Part shown: one piece after another, positions 11,323-14,977 of the stretch
Layout: every line of letters starts with the position of its first letter
Position numbering within the stretch: position 1 is the stretch's first letter
Assembly (NCBI GenBank): GCA_947650875.1
Contig: CANSXE010000013.1
Span: 1-35,932, forward strand
Direction: 5' to 3'
Source: an uncultured Bacillota bacterium
GTDB lineage: Bacteria > Bacillota > Clostridia > Oscillospirales > Oscillospiraceae
DNA length: 35,932 nt
The notes under the pieces: model-generated
The model's database searches: none
What the model was told of the DNA's origin: nothing
What the model saw: the letters and a program-made list of their open reading frames with translations, nothing else
Program-made: the position numbers and the translations under genes

Positions 11323-11353
11323 TTGACTTTCCCCTTTCTGGATGGTGTACAGT
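11323..11353 (+). promoter_or_regulatory. MerR-type promoter and operator 1 (protease gene)
   Basis: TTGACT (11323-11328), 19-base spacer, TACAGT (11348-11353). A 19-bp spacer is the defining property of promoters twisted open by MerR-family activators. The spacer holds a degenerate dyad, ACTTTCC-N7-GGATGGT. It is nearly identical to the second copy at 12175-12205. Confidence 0.75.
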
Positions 11354-11377
11354 GTCCTCAGAAAGGAGCTGAAGAGC

Positions 11378-12178
11378 ATGGAAAATAATCTGATGGTGGC
11401 CCAAGCCACGATGATAGCCATGGCATTGGCCGGGATATTTACGGTGGTCCTTCCTCTGGGACTGGGGATCTTCTTTTGGAGGAAAACTGGGGGGCGCTGG
11501 CGGTTTTTCTTCCTTGGCTGCGTGATATTCCCTGTGTTTGCCCTGGTGCTGGAGCAGCAGGCCCACAGGCTGCTTCTGGGAGGTCTGCTGGGCCCGGCAC
11601 TGCAGGGAAATCTCTGGCTGTACGCCCTGTACGCCGGTCTGATGGCCGGGGTATTTGAGGAGTGCGGGCGGTGGCTGGCCCTCAAATTAACCCTGCGATG
11701 GAGCCGGGGACCGGAAGATGCCTTGATGTATGGCGCGGGCCATGGTGGAATTGAGGCAGTGCTGGTGGCCGGGATGACCATGCTGAACAACATTATCATT
11801 TCCCTGGCGCTGAACCGGGGCGGACTGGCAGCTCTGGAGGACCTCATGGGACCCATCCCGGAGGCGGGGATGGCGGCAATCCAGGGTATGGCCGCTGCTC
11901 CGGCGGGTCTCTACTTCTGGACGGCCTTTGAGCGGCTGTCAGCAGTGGGCTTGCACATCGCCCTGTCGGTACTGGTGTATACCGCCGTCCGCAAGCGGGG
12001 GAAGTGGTATTGGTTCCCTGCGGCAATTCTGATTCATACCCTGATGGATATGACGGCCGTTTTGACAAACGCCCTTTTCCCTGTTGCCGTCACAGAGGGG
12101 ACAATTGCCCTGCTCGTCCTGGGGGTGATATTCCTTGCCCGAAAAATTTATTTGGATGAAAAGCAGAAAACCCCTTGA
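11378..12178 (+). CDS. YhfC-family intramembrane metalloprotease
   Basis: 266 residues with about seven to eight hydrophobic helices. The candidate metal ligands and catalytic residues of the YhfC/CPBP-like group are visible: E94-E95 (FEECGRW), H122 and E126 (GAGHGGIEA), and H220 with D224 (HTLMDM). These proteins are predicted membrane-embedded proteases; substrates are unknown. The ATG at 11378 has AAAGGAG nine bases upstream. The mRNA leader would be only about 18 bases. It is transcribed from a MerR-type promoter matching that of the downstream membrane-MerR operon, which implies co-regulation. The stop codon TGA is embedded in the -35 box of that second promoter. Confidence 0.82.
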   Translation: MENNLMVAQATMIAMALAGIFTVVLPLGLGIFFWRKTGGRWRFFFLGCVIFPVFALVLEQQAHRLLLGGLLGPALQGNLWLYALYAGLMAGVFEECGRWLALKLTLRWSRGPEDALMYGAGHGGIEAVLVAGMTMLNNIIISLALNRGGLAALEDLMGPIPEAGMAAIQGMAAAPAGLYFWTAFERLSAVGLHIALSVLVYTAVRKRGKWYWFPAAILIHTLMDMTAVLTNALFPVAVTEGTIALLVLGVIFLARKIYLDEKQKTP

Positions 12179-12205
12179 CTTTCCCCCTTGTGGAAGGTGT
12201 AGAGT
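12175..12205 (+). promoter_or_regulatory. MerR-type promoter and operator 2 (regulator operon)
   Basis: TTGACT (12175-12180), 19-base spacer, TAGAGT (12200-12205). The dyad ACTTTCC-N7-GGAAGGT has one mismatch. It shares 25 of 31 positions with operator 1 by eye, and it overlaps the stop codon of the protease gene. Confidence 0.8.
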
Positions 12206-12228
12206 AGGGGCAGAAAGGGGGATTGCCC

Positions 12229-12879
12229 ATGAAAATCAACGAGGTAGAGACCCAGGTGGGCATCACCAAGAAGAACATCCGCTTTTATGAGGAGCAGGGG
12301 CTGCTCTCCCCCCGGCGCAACAGCGAGAACGGCTACCGGGACTACGGCGAGACGGAGGTGGCCGTGCTGCGGCAGATCAAGCTCATGCGCAAGCTGGGCG
12401 TGCCCCTGGAGGAGATTCGCAGGATGCAGGCCGGGGGCACGGTGGCCGACGGCATGCGCCGGCACCTGGTCACCCTGGAGCGGGAGCAGAAGAGCCTGGA
12501 GCAGTCCATTCAGCTGTGCCAGTCGTTAAAGGACCGGGAGGAGCGGCTGGACAGCCTGGACGCCGCCGCCCTGCTGGAGGAGATGGACCGCCTGGAGCAG
12601 ACCGGCACCACCTTCCAGGACAAGCAGAAGCACGACGCCAAGCCCGTCCGGTACGCCGGGGCGGTGGTGATGGCCCTGCTGACCACCGCCCTGATGGCCG
12701 CCCTCATCGTGCTGATGGTGTGGGGCTTCACCGTGGCCCCCGCCGACGCCCCGCCCCTGCCGCTGCTGCTTGTGCTGGTGGCCATTCCGGGGGTGATTAT
12801 CCTGGGCGTCCTGCTGGCCCTGTTCCAGAGGATTAAGGAAATTCAGAAAGGAGAGGAAGACGATGCGAAAAGCTACTGA
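12229..12879 (+). CDS. Membrane-tethered MerR-family transcription regulator
   Basis: 216 residues from the ATG at 12229, which follows AAAGGGGG. The N-terminal winged helix-turn-helix (1-70) is a clear MerR DNA-binding domain: TKKNIRFYEEQGLLSPRR, NGYRDY, LRQIKLMRKLGVPLEEI. A coiled coil at about 75-125 should dimerise it. In place of a soluble effector domain there are two hydrophobic helices (about 142-167 and 178-199), then a cytoplasmic tail KEIQKGEEDDAKSY. Known MerR members with such an anchor are few. The promoter in front has MerR architecture, so autoregulation is likely. The gene overlaps the next by 17 bases. Confidence 0.9.
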   Translation: MKINEVETQVGITKKNIRFYEEQGLLSPRRNSENGYRDYGETEVAVLRQIKLMRKLGVPLEEIRRMQAGGTVADGMRRHLVTLEREQKSLEQSIQLCQSLKDREERLDSLDAAALLEEMDRLEQTGTTFQDKQKHDAKPVRYAGAVVMALLTTALMAALIVLMVWGFTVAPADAPPLPLLLVLVAIPGVIILGVLLALFQRIKEIQKGEEDDAKSY

Positions 12880-13141
12880 ACCGCGAAAGGAACAGCTGAA
12901 AAAGCTGTGGTCTCGTTTCCGTTTCATCGCGGCAATTACCAGCCCGTTCTGGATGCTGGCCCTGTTGATTGAGGGCAGCTTGGGCACCCGTCTCCTGGGG
13001 GCGGCGGTTCTGCTGCTAATTCCTGTATGCGTTCTGTACTCCTACCGCTGGGTGGCTTATGTGGTGGGAATCCTTTTCGCTGTTGGTCAGCGGCGGGAGG
13101 AGATTAGGAAAGGAGAGGAAAACGATGCAAAAAACTACTGA
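12863..13141 (+). CDS. Small two-helix membrane protein A with KGEE tail
   Basis: 92 residues. A basic N-terminus (RKEQLKKLWSRFR) is followed by helices at about 21-40 and 45-74. The tail REEIRKGEENDAKNY closely matches the tail of the upstream MerR protein. No family name is recognised. The start at 12863 lies inside the 3' end of the regulator gene, and GGAGAGGAA within the regulator's KGEE codons is the ribosome site, so translation is coupled. Likely role: a partner or paralogue of the regulator's membrane module. Confidence 0.8.
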   Translation: MRKATEPRKEQLKKLWSRFRFIAAITSPFWMLALLIEGSLGTRLLGAAVLLLIPVCVLYSYRWVAYVVGILFAVGQRREEIRKGEENDAKNY

Positions 13142-13397
13142 CAAGAAGGGCCACGGCCTGATGGGCGGCGTGATCGTGACGGTGCTGGTGGTGGGCTTTG
13201 TCCTGCTGTTTCTGGCATTTTTGCTCCAGATGCTGGGCCCCCTGTTCCCCTTCCTGGGCGAGCTGGGAGCCAGCCTTGGAATCCTTCTGTTCTACGTCGG
13301 GGCCATCCTGGCCGTGGGGGTCGGCGTCGTTGCGGCGCTGATCCAGCGGTGGAAGGAGGTCAAGGGGGGAGAAGAGGATGAAGCGAGAAAGTATTGA
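13125..13397 (+). CDS. Small two-helix membrane protein B with KGEE-like tail
   Basis: 90 residues from the ATG at 13125, preceded by AAAGGAGAGGAA. Two long hydrophobic helices lie at about 14-41 and 47-73, and the C-terminus WKEVKGGEEDEARKY carries the same tail as its neighbours. The start overlaps the preceding gene by 17 bases. A longer in-frame extension upstream to 13059 overlaps more and lacks a ribosome site, so it is not used. Unrecognised; probably a duplicate of protein A, diverged in sequence but not in layout. Confidence 0.78.
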   Translation: MQKTTDKKGHGLMGGVIVTVLVVGFVLLFLAFLLQMLGPLFPFLGELGASLGILLFYVGAILAVGVGVVAALIQRWKEVKGGEEDEARKY

Positions 13398-13623
13398 GAA
13401 GCGCGCGGCGGTGAAGTCGGCGGTGCTGAGCACCCTGTTTCAGGTGCTGGGGGCGGCGGCCCTGCTCCACCTGCGGACCTTGGGCCCGCCGGAATGGCTG
13501 GCCGGCCTGATGCTGATTCTGGCCGTTGCCGACCTGATCACCATTCCCTTCACCTTCACCGCCCTGTGGCAGCGGGTGCGGGAGATTGAAAAGGGCGAAC
13601 TGGAAGAAGCCAAAAAATACTGA
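13378..13623 (+). CDS. Small two-helix membrane protein C with KGE tail
   Basis: 81 residues. Basic N-terminus (MKRESIEKRAAVKS), helices at about 14-32 and 38-62, tail VREIEKGELEEAKKY. It overlaps the previous gene by 20 bases with GGGGGGAG upstream. It is the last of the series and has no overlapping gene behind it. Its conserved tail therefore cannot be explained by a ribosome site needed for a following gene. Confidence 0.78.
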   Translation: MKRESIEKRAAVKSAVLSTLFQVLGAAALLHLRTLGPPEWLAGLMLILAVADLITIPFTFTALWQRVREIEKGELEEAKKY

Positions 13624-13650
13624 TTCCATTTTTATAAGGAGGACAATATT

Positions 13651-13962
13651 ATGCTGCTGGTAAACATCGACTACATCCCCGGGAAGGAATTTGAGGTGCT
13701 GGGTATGGCCAAGGGCACCGTGGTCCAGTCCAAGAACTTCGGCAAGGACTTTATGGCCGGCATGAAGACCCTGGTGGGCGGCGAGATCACCGGCTACACC
13801 GAGATGCTCAACGAGGCCCGGCAGATCGCCGTCAAGCGCATGGTGGACGAGGCCGAGGCCCTGGGGGCCGACGCGGTGGTGAACATCCGCTACGGCTCCT
13901 CCGCCGTGATGCAGGGGGCCGCCGAGGTCATCGCCTACGGCACCGCAGTGCGGTTCAAATAA
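13651..13962 (+). CDS. YbjQ/UPF0145-family protein
   Basis: 103 residues, the normal length for the YbjQ (DUF74) family: N-terminal IDYIPGKEFEVLGMAKGTVV, then VGGEITGYTEMLNEARQIAVKRMVDEAEALGADAVVNIRY and a C-terminal YGTAVRF strand. Family members form compact pentamers annotated as heavy-metal-binding on weak grounds; true function is unknown. AAGGAGG lies eight bases upstream. With a 27-base gap to the preceding gene and a terminator right after it, it is the last gene of the membrane-MerR operon. Confidence 0.92.
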   Translation: MLLVNIDYIPGKEFEVLGMAKGTVVQSKNFGKDFMAGMKTLVGGEITGYTEMLNEARQIAVKRMVDEAEALGADAVVNIRYGSSAVMQGAAEVIAYGTAVRFK

Positions 13963-13970
13963 ACAGATGC

Positions 13971-14002
13971 AAGGGACGGTCTGAAGACCGTCCCTTCTTT
14001 CA
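13971..14002 (+). terminator. terminator of the membrane-MerR operon
   Basis: Perfect 12-bp palindromic hairpin AAGGGACGGTCT-GA-AGACCGTCCCTT (13971-13996) followed by CTTTC. Confidence 0.75.
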
Positions 14003-14014
14003 GAAAATCTTAAT

Positions 14015-14043
14015 TTGACAAGTTTTTTCAGCAGGACTATAAT
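14015..14043 (+). promoter_or_regulatory. perfect consensus sigma-A promoter
   Basis: TTGACA (14015-14020), 17-base spacer, TATAAT (14038-14043). Every consensus base is present, which suggests strong expression of the gene at 14084. Confidence 0.92.
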
Positions 14044-14083: not shown

Positions 14084-14977
14084 ATGTTTGGATTTGGAAA
14101 AAAGGAGGCCAAAACGCTGGAGGAGCGGTTGGCCGAGCTGGAAAAGAAGCAGGATTGGGCTGGGCTGGCCAAGGCCTATTATGAGCTGGGGGTTTCCGCC
14201 ATGGACGGGGGCGATCTGAACCACGCCCAGCTGTGGCTCCACCGGGCAGATACCATCTACAGCGCTGACGACACCACCTATGAGAAGGTGGGCGACAAGC
14301 TCACTGACGACTGCTCTGACCGTATCGGAACCCTGGAAGACGAAGAAGAACTGTTCTATAACGCCGTCCTCGCTGAGATCGAGGAGAAATCGGAAGATCT
14401 GCTCCCCCGGCTCCGGGCATGGGGACTGCTGTCCATGGCCCGGCTGGTGAAGCTGGGAGAGCAGCTTTCAAAGCTGCCCGGCTGCGCGGTGCTGGGCGAG
14501 CTGGGCTGGGCGGTGGATATGATGGCCCGCTGCTTCCAGGCGCCCCCCTCCCAGGAGGAGTATCAGCACCTGATGGATGTGTGCAACGCCCTCTATGAGC
14601 TCAACGGCAAGAAAATTTATTACACCGGTCAAATCGAAGTCCCCGGAAAAGCTCCCTTCCAGCTGTTCGACCTGAACGGCATGTTCGGGGTGGAGCAGGA
14701 GCTCAACGGCTACATCGACAGCCATCTGCGGCTCGTAGCCGCCCTGAGCCAGGGGGCGGAGGAGCTGCCCAATGCCGAGAGCAGCATCGTGGCCTGCGCG
14801 CTGCTGCCCGACTACTACGTCCGCACCGGGGCGGGCCAGCTGGAGGAAGTCCCCCAGATCAAGGCCGAGCTGGCACGCATCTGGAGCGACTATGAGTTTG
14901 TCCGGGACCGCTTCTCCTGGGAGGAGACCGCGGAGAAGATTGCAGCGTACAAGCAGCTGGATATTTTGGCAGGTTGA
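14084..14977 (+). CDS. Unrecognised 297-residue soluble protein
   Basis: Starts MFGFGKKEAKTLEERLAELEKK at the ATG at 14084, with AGGAGA about nine bases upstream; an ATG at 14075 overlaps that site. No signal peptide or membrane segment. Residues about 15-75 look like a helical TPR/SEL1-like repeat pair (WAGLAKAYYELGVSAMDGGDLNHAQLWLHRAD). The rest is mixed helix and strand, rich in Glu and Leu, with no catalytic motif that I recognise. It has a perfect consensus promoter and a terminator to itself, so it is likely an abundant cytosolic protein. A housekeeping or immunity-like role cannot be distinguished. Confidence 0.8.
   Translation: MFGFGKKEAKTLEERLAELEKKQDWAGLAKAYYELGVSAMDGGDLNHAQLWLHRADTIYSADDTTYEKVGDKLTDDCSDRIGTLEDEEELFYNAVLAEIEEKSEDLLPRLRAWGLLSMARLVKLGEQLSKLPGCAVLGELGWAVDMMARCFQAPPSQEEYQHLMDVCNALYELNGKKIYYTGQIEVPGKAPFQLFDLNGMFGVEQELNGYIDSHLRLVAALSQGAEELPNAESSIVACALLPDYYVRTGAGQLEEVPQIKAELARIWSDYEFVRDRFSWEETAEKIAAYKQLDILAG

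What the first reader, a model, noticed from the sequence alone, without database searches (positions are those of the whole stretch)
11323..13962. A membrane-tethered MerR regulator and a YhfC intramembrane protease share twin MerR-type promoters
Two promoters, 850 bp apart, have the same unusual layout: TTGACT, exactly 19 bp, TACAGT or TAGAGT, with the same ACTTTCC-N7-GGAAGGT-like dyad and only about 18-25 bases to the start codon. One drives a predicted intramembrane protease, the other a MerR protein ending in two membrane helices plus three small membrane proteins and a YbjQ protein. MerR activators are known to need such long spacers. The inference is one regulon in which a membrane signal, possibly through cleavage by the protease, changes MerR activity.
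Basis: partly seen in the sequence, partly recalled or inferred. Interest (0 to 1): 0.82.

Follow-up and report, generated by a model that had tools for sequence, protein, structure and literature searches.

The report
Membrane-anchored MerR envelope-stress regulon
In a family of gut bacteria, a gene switch that appears to be anchored in the cell membrane seems to turn on a set of membrane-protection genes, including the membrane protease next to it, through one shared type of promoter.

Summary
Two promoters 852 bp apart share TTGACT, a 19-bp spacer, TANAGT and the same dyad. They score 47.4 and 40.7 with a matrix not trained on them; the next best place in the window scores -0.9. Comparative genomics supports "one regulon". 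In the 80 closest named loci fetched, the MerR with two C-terminal membrane helices is followed by YbjQ in 80 of 80 and led by the site in 78 of 80. Of 26 YhfC genes directly upstream of it, 24 carry the site. Three unlinked YhfC genes from other lineages carry it too. Over 400 sampled family genomes, 51 of 73 with this MerR have two or more sites; 14 of 327 without it have any. Further sites lead MacAB-type efflux operons, PF00144 hydrolases, ABC transporters, NfeD-SPFH, a PLD-type enzyme and YhfC. Best reading: a membrane-embedded MerR sensor of envelope stress with constant partner YbjQ, working like Bacillus sigma-W. YhfC is a target, not the general trigger: 16 of 21 genomes with this MerR gave no YhfC match. 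Binding, signal and cleavage are untested.

The parts
11323..11353 (+). MerR-type promoter of YhfC: TTGACT-19-TACAGT with dyad
   Evidence: Sequence; 26.4 bits with profile R1, which was not trained on it; conserved island in 23 YhfC leaders, mean information 1.38 against 0.50 and 0.40 bits in the flanks
11378..12178 (+). YhfC intramembrane protease family (PF10086), 266 aa; EE..GR, HGG.E and H residues conserved
12175..12205 (+). MerR-type promoter of the MerR gene: TTGACT-19-TAGAGT with dyad; its -35 box overlaps the YhfC stop codon
   Evidence: Sequence; equivalent site in front of 20 of 20 relatives' MerR starts printed and 78 of 80 named loci
12229..12879 (+). MerR regulator with coiled coil, two C-terminal membrane helices and tail R.KEI.KGE..DA..Y, 216 aa (called MerR-TM here)
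   Evidence: PF13411 72.6 bits; AlphaFold; fold nearest CadR/CueR; alignment A2
12863..13141 (+). Small two-helix membrane protein 1, paralogue of the MerR hairpin and tail; start overlaps the MerR end by 17 nt
13125..13397 (+). Small two-helix membrane protein 2, same tail
13378..13623 (+). Small two-helix membrane protein 3, same tail
13651..13962 (+). YbjQ family protein (PF01906), no membrane helix predicted, no Cys or His; downstream of MerR-TM in the relatives examined
   Evidence: 126 bits; hydropathy; no Cys or His; 20 of 20 and 80 of 80; in L312 it has a site of its own
13971..13996 (.). 11-bp inverted repeat after YbjQ, probable terminator of the unit
   Evidence: One search lists it on the minus strand only; on the plus strand it is followed by CTTTC (my reading). 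The scan found 4 terminator-like sites against 4.1 expected in shuffles, so the call alone is no evidence

Best explanation
The region is the core of an autoregulated cell-envelope-stress regulon. The MerR protein is probably anchored in the membrane by a hairpin of two helices with only about 8-14 residues between them, so it most likely reads the state of the membrane itself rather than a soluble ligand. When the membrane is disturbed, the hairpin is thought to change the MerR dimer so that it untwists 19-bp-spacer promoters and activates them. It activates its own operon (MerR, usually one or more hairpin paralogues, YbjQ) and, depending on the genome, a MacAB-type exporter (often with a TetR gene), a beta-lactamase-fold hydrolase, an ABC exporter, NfeD-SPFH proteins, a PLD-type (cardiolipin synthase-like) enzyme, or the intramembrane protease YhfC. 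YbjQ is the constant neighbour and, with the hairpin paralogues, probably sets the response. YhfC is one of the induced protective enzymes; because its gene runs into MerR it also gives a second positive-feedback input. Shown by computation: the sites, their conservation, gene order, co-occurrence and target list. Inferred: binding by this MerR, activation rather than repression, the membrane signal, and the roles of YbjQ and YhfC.
For: (2) With a profile of MerR auto-sites only, 73 of 73 sampled genomes with MerR-TM have a match and 51 of 73 have two or more (141 matches, 68 beyond one per genome), against 14 of 327 genomes without it (18 matches). (3) The reversed profile gives no hit at 19.7 bits or more in 120 genomes (best 17.8), where the true profile gives 18 non-auto sites in the 21 genomes with MerR-TM and 3 in the 99 without. 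(4) YhfC: 24 of 26 MerR-linked copies have the site against 0 of 22 other family YhfC leaders scored; on the YhfC tree the site label needs at least 3 changes, so one gain without losses does not explain it. (5) Recurrent targets: of the 18 non-auto sites, 8 MacAB, 3 ABC, 2 NfeD-SPFH, 2 YhfC, 1 PLD-type enzyme, 1 PF00144, 1 without class; of 40 more examined, 18 MacAB (2 of them weak), 7 PF00144, 3 YhfC, 3 ABC, 1 NfeD-SPFH, 8 without class. (6) These classes resemble the sigma-W regulon of B. subtilis: yknWXYZ and the flotillins floA/floT (passages of PMC8144471), pbpE (passages of PMC3498285). (7) MerR proteins repress, then activate, 19-20-bp-spacer promoters by distortion (passages of PMC9909328).
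Against: No binding, expression or stress data. 29 of 120 family genomes have YhfC but only 2 carry the site at it, so control of YhfC is a lineage feature; three genomes with MerR-TM (G072, G101, G109) have a YhfC without the site. In two of the 80 loci the MerR lacks a site of 20 or more (L274, L296) and in L276 it is weak (20.4). Five of the 14 site-positive genomes without MerR-TM were looked at: in G066 and G202 the site leads other, larger MerR genes, in G353 a YhfC, and in G008 and G077 no known class. Eight of the 14 belong to genera with MerR-TM (five incomplete genomes, G129, G149, G222, G353, G379; three near-complete ones of g66, G066, G145, G202), so sharing of the site between MerR proteins is likely at least there. 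Eight of 40 further sites lead no recognised class. That PbpE is PF00144 and YknXYZ MacAB-like is recalled. Membrane insertion is predicted only.
Confidence: 0.72

Rival explanations
1. Regulated intramembrane proteolysis: YhfC cuts the MerR hairpin and releases an active or inactive MerR.
For: YhfC keeps conserved EE, R and H residues, is next to MerR and shares its site; DUF2324 is called another PrsW-like peptidase in a passage of PMC3482391 (that DUF2324 is YhfC is recalled).
Against: 16 of 21 genomes with MerR-TM have no PF10086 match at E 0.001 and keep the site; three YhfC genes with the site are not next to MerR and group with other YhfC lineages. Feedback cleavage in the YhfC-bearing lineages only remains possible; some of the 16 genomes are incomplete.
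Confidence: 0.12
2. The dyads are generic MerR sites used by other MerR proteins of the cell; the likeness of the two promoters reflects family consensus only.
For: A site occurs in front of sibling MerR genes in G066 and G202 and, weaker (17.8 bits), G112; the half-sites look like the usual MerR-family ones (recalled).
Against: Strong co-occurrence with MerR-TM (51 of 73 with two or more against 14 of 327 with any), auto-site conservation 78 of 80, and a reversed-profile control without comparable hits.
Confidence: 0.08
3. A metal-resistance unit: MerR metal sensor plus a heavy-metal-binding YbjQ.
For: Nearest solved folds are CadR and CueR; Pfam calls YbjQ 'putative heavy-metal-binding'.
Against: The MerR is far below the CueR, CadR, ZntR and MerR equivalog cut-offs (for CueR 56.9 against 147.4 bits); the window YbjQ has no Cys or His; no metal transporter class was recognised among the targets examined.
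Confidence: 0.06

Closest known systems
MerR-family activators (CueR, CadR, BmrR)
   Same: Winged-helix domain, dimer coiled coil, palindrome inside a 19-bp spacer (PMC9909328 passages)
   Different: The C-terminal ligand part is replaced by a two-helix membrane hairpin and a conserved tail; the recognised targets are envelope genes
Transmembrane one-component transcription regulators (BcrR, HigX and others)
   Same: DNA-binding domain and membrane helices in one polypeptide, suggested to read the state of the membrane (passages of PMC10269533 and PMC13384398)
   Different: MerR-type promoter with a dyad in a 19-bp spacer, constant YbjQ neighbour and duplicated hairpins; MerR as a family name was not found in the main text of PMC10269533 (its supplement was not open to me)
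Sigma-W regulon of Bacillus subtilis
   Same: Overlapping effector classes: YknWXYZ-type exporter, flotillin operons, pbpE (passages)
   Different: Control here is assigned to a MerR protein, not a sigma factor; YhfC as a target
YhfC / PrsW / CAAX-protease superfamily
   Same: PF10086 match, conserved E, R and H residues, fold like APH-1 and more weakly Rce1
   Different: Placed under the MerR-type promoter in more than one YhfC lineage; substrate unknown

Membership tests
MerR family | N-terminal MerR winged helix-turn-helix | tested here: met
   PF13411 2.9e-20, above the curated cut-off; fold nearest CadR/CueR
MerR family | Dyad inside a 19-20-bp promoter spacer of regulated genes | tested here: met
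MerR family | Binding and untwisting of the promoter | not testable with these tools
   Needs footprinting and transcription assays
MerR metal sensors (CueR, CadR, ZntR) | Equivalog score above the curated cut-off | tested here: not met
   CueR 56.9 against 147.4, CadR-PbrR 43.8 against 151.45, ZntR 43.6 against 167.95 bits
Transmembrane transcription regulators | DNA-binding domain plus membrane helices in one protein | tested here: met
   By prediction only: hydropathy and AlphaFold helices 140-169 and 177-215
Transmembrane transcription regulators | Located in the membrane and active from there | not testable with these tools
   Needs fractionation or imaging
YhfC intramembrane proteases (PF10086) | Profile match and conserved E, R and H residues | tested here: met
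   159.7 bits; invariant E94, E95, R98, H122, E126, H220 in 28 rows
YhfC intramembrane proteases (PF10086) | Peptidase activity | not testable with these tools
   Needs an assay
Regulated intramembrane proteolysis system | Protease regularly present with its substrate | tested here: not met
   For YhfC: PF10086 in only 5 of 21 genomes with MerR-TM. Other proteases were not tested
Sigma-W type ECF system | ECF sigma factor with anti-sigma factor controlling the targets | not tested
   No sigma or anti-sigma gene among the proteins of the unit; the genome was not searched for one. Only the list of targets is alike

The most novel reading that the evidence does not exclude
An intramembrane-sensing MerR: a transcription factor that distorts promoters while embedded in the membrane, its hairpin sensing lipid or envelope perturbation directly, tuned by a dedicated YbjQ partner and by free copies of its own hairpin that can pair with it. 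It would run a sigma-W-like defence in a major gut family and take in effectors such as YhfC repeatedly through new copies of one 31-bp promoter.
Probability: 0.45. Interest if true: 0.85.

Novelty: new variant of a known kind. Interest (0 to 1): 0.7.

Why it matters
It gives a testable candidate for how a large group of gut bacteria (genomes titled Lawsonibacter, Flintibacter, Pseudoflavonifractor, Oscillibacter and relatives) may sense membrane damage. It gives YbjQ, a family without a known role that I could find, a probable regulatory partner, and YhfC proteases a regulatory context. It suggests that promoter distortion by MerR proteins can be driven from within the membrane, and the 31-bp site can be used to predict targets in other genomes.

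Tried and rejected

Rows dropped and limits: for the YhfC tree I left out seven duplicates of other rows (L103, L107, L276, L277, L287, L301, L311), L113 (cut by its contig end) and L253 (no leader to score); L278, with a degenerate site, was counted with the site group. Six YhfC loci without a BLAST hit (L116, L118, L119, L121, L123, L124) are in no YhfC count. In one search the opposite-strand hit on the same place in G082:C25 was not counted; the match totals may include such doubles, and 'one per genome' stands for the auto-site although G213 and G308 have a weak one or none. The 40 further sites were chosen from the listed rows, whose list was cut; they are not all of the further matches, and two of them (G353, G202) lie in genomes without MerR-TM. 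The genome searches score only the best first-look candidates, so weak matches can be missed. In one search the L036 row was placed one base off, which slightly lowers the information of the site columns. The 'SLH' reference was a badly bounded frame and its hits are not used. Alignment A5 held one wrongly oriented row and was replaced by A6.
Full report
WHAT IS THERE. The window holds, on the + strand, a YhfC gene (11378-12178), a MerR gene (12229-12879), three small membrane protein genes (12863-13141, 13125-13397, 13378-13623) and a YbjQ gene (13651-13962), followed by an 11-bp inverted repeat at 13971-13996. The exact layout occurs three times in the assembly, twice here. With the window's own site left out of training, the two places score 40.7 and 47.4 against -0.9 for the next best place in the window and at most 12.3 in 40 Markov sequences.

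THE REGULATOR. The MerR has a normal MerR DNA-binding domain, a coiled coil and then two helices of membrane character (hydropathy; AlphaFold mean pLDDT 84, helices 140-169 and 177-215), with a very short turn between them. It ends in a tail, R.KEI.KGE..DA..Y, which the three small proteins also carry; they are homologues of its hairpin. The last codons overlap the start of the next gene by 17 nt in the window, and the YbjQ start directly in relatives without small genes, so translation is probably coupled. In 20 genomes examined, 22 of 25 matches to this hairpin-and-tail domain lie in MerR-TM operons. Cys97 is at least 90% conserved in 20 rows; its role is open.

CONSERVATION. In 120 sampled family genomes, 21 including the window's own have this MerR (E 3e-44 or better). 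All 20 relatives' loci have YbjQ just downstream, and the site stands before the 20 relatives' MerR starts printed, a little degenerate in some of the more distant ones (L048, L051, L053). YbjQ follows in 80 of 80 and the auto-site is present in 78 of 80 (L274 and L296 lack it, and in L296 a site stands before an upstream gene). Of 348 genomes sampled across the phylum only the window's own matched at E 1e-40.

YHFC. Directly upstream of MerR, YhfC was found in 21 of the 80 named loci, and 19 of these have the site; of the others, L253 ends 26 bp before the YhfC start and L278 has a degenerate site. With the window and four genomes not among the 80 (L187, L188, L191, L192) the count is 24 of 26. 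In 23 such leaders the site is a conserved island, 1.38 bits per column against 0.50 and 0.40 in the flanks. Three YhfC genes not next to MerR also carry it (L212, L236, L245). In 22 other YhfC leaders from the family no score exceeds 3.7; these include genomes with MerR-TM (G101, G109), so not every YhfC is a target. On a tree of 49 YhfC proteins (28 with, 21 without the site; L278 counted as with) the site label needs four changes, at least three by supported branches: the three unlinked cases sit among YhfC proteins without the site, so different YhfC lineages probably came under the same promoter separately. That is my strongest argument that control of YhfC is functional. YhfC keeps its conserved E, R and H residues and its model resembles APH-1, with Rce1 as a weak match.

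THE REGULON. A sequence profile of 21 MerR auto-sites was run over 120 genomes: 18 non-auto sites at 19.7 bits or more in the 21 genomes with MerR-TM, 3 in the 99 without. The same profile reversed gave none at that level (best 17.8). Over 400 genomes, 73 have MerR-TM by profile (E 4e-68 or better; the next best match is 9e-46); all 73 have a site match at E 0.003, 51 have two or more (141 matches, 68 beyond one per genome), against 14 of 327 genomes without it, with 18 matches (Fisher p 5e-34, not corrected for relatedness). Eight of those 14 are of genera with MerR-TM members: five incomplete genomes (G129, G149, G222, G353, G379) and three near-complete ones of genus g66 (G066, G145, G202); in G066 and G202 the site leads a different, larger MerR. 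The window's own genome also has a weaker site (17.0 bits) before MacA and MacB-type ATPase genes.

TARGETS. Of the 18 non-auto sites: MacAB operons 8, ABC transporters 3, NfeD-SPFH 2, YhfC 2, PLD-type (cardiolipin synthase-like) enzyme 1, PF00144 hydrolase 1, no class 1 (G073:C25). Of 40 further sites examined: MacAB 18 (two of them weak matches; 10 of the other 16 with a TetR gene first), PF00144 7, YhfC 3, ABC 3, NfeD-SPFH 1, no class 8 (one search lists candidate first genes for seven of the eight; the eighth, L246, leads sibling MerR genes). Classes are by BLAST to references taken from these loci themselves; Pfam was run on ten of them.

HOW IT PROBABLY WORKS. MerR proteins bind between -35 and -10 elements that are 19-20 bp apart and activate by distorting the DNA (passages of PMC9909328; listing and start of abstract of PMC8113463). 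Here the ligand domain is replaced by a membrane hairpin with hardly any extracytoplasmic part, which argues for sensing inside or at the membrane; this is inference. The target classes match envelope defence: in B. subtilis, sigma-W drives yknWXYZ (protection against the SdpC toxin) and the flotillin operons, and pbpE (passages of PMC8144471 and PMC3498285). That YknXYZ is MacAB-like and that PbpE has the PF00144 fold is recalled. I conclude that this is a MerR-based system that works like the sigma-W response but is not shown to be related to it. YbjQ is constant and in L312 has a site of its own, so it is probably both partner and target; its biochemical role is unknown, and solved relatives (1y2i, 2gtc, 1vr4) are called hypothetical or UPF0145.

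Right: promoters, genes, one regulon, likely membrane signal. Not supported: YhfC as the general switch, since 16 of 21 genomes with MerR-TM have no PF10086 match at E 0.001 (some of these genomes are incomplete, but G039 is 98% complete). A lineage-specific feedback by cleavage remains possible.

KNOWN OR NEW. Membrane-bound one-component regulators are known as a class (PMC10269533, passages and one section; PMC13384398, passages). My phrase searches for membrane-bound MerR proteins found no paper in the held library, and no word beginning with membrane or transmembrane occurs in the main text of the MerR review PMC9909328. Supplementary tables were not open to me, and most subscription papers are not held, so MerR members may be listed elsewhere. 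I file it as a new variant of a known kind.

On re-reading the calls I corrected the account of the 14 site-positive genomes without MerR-TM, the E-value and the description of the 80 named loci, and confirmed the target classes of the first set by BLAST.

Noticed in passing
L055-L062 and L064 (for example L057:5196-6590 and L059:4682-6106): A second kind of membrane MerR: MerR domain fused to an RDD membrane domain (PF06271 in the two tested) and a C-terminal region. All 9 looked at have a different promoter-like sequence, TTGACTGT... in the 19-bp-spacer register, starting 51-117 nt before the assumed start.
   Followed up: partly
L065, L246, L180: A third kind: MerR proteins of about 289-308 aa; the three read in full (L065 and two in L246) have two C-terminal membrane helices by hydropathy. 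Those in G066 and G202 are led by the same dyad as the MerR studied here.
   Followed up: partly
window 12860-12880 and equivalents in relatives: The conserved tail codons of the MerR also encode the probable ribosome-binding site and start of the next gene (overlap 17 nt), so protein and translation-coupling constraints are mixed there.
   Followed up: no
L227, L237: Two sites lead similar, probably secreted proteins (MNSIGKRLGALGTAAVL... and kin) of unknown link to the regulon.
   Followed up: no
window 14015-14043: A perfect consensus sigma-70 promoter (TTGACA-17-TATAAT) stands before the gene at 14084, for which Pfam has no match.
   Followed up: no
L029 (G058:C91) and G249:C195: Contigs with two MerR-domain genes close together.
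   Followed up: no
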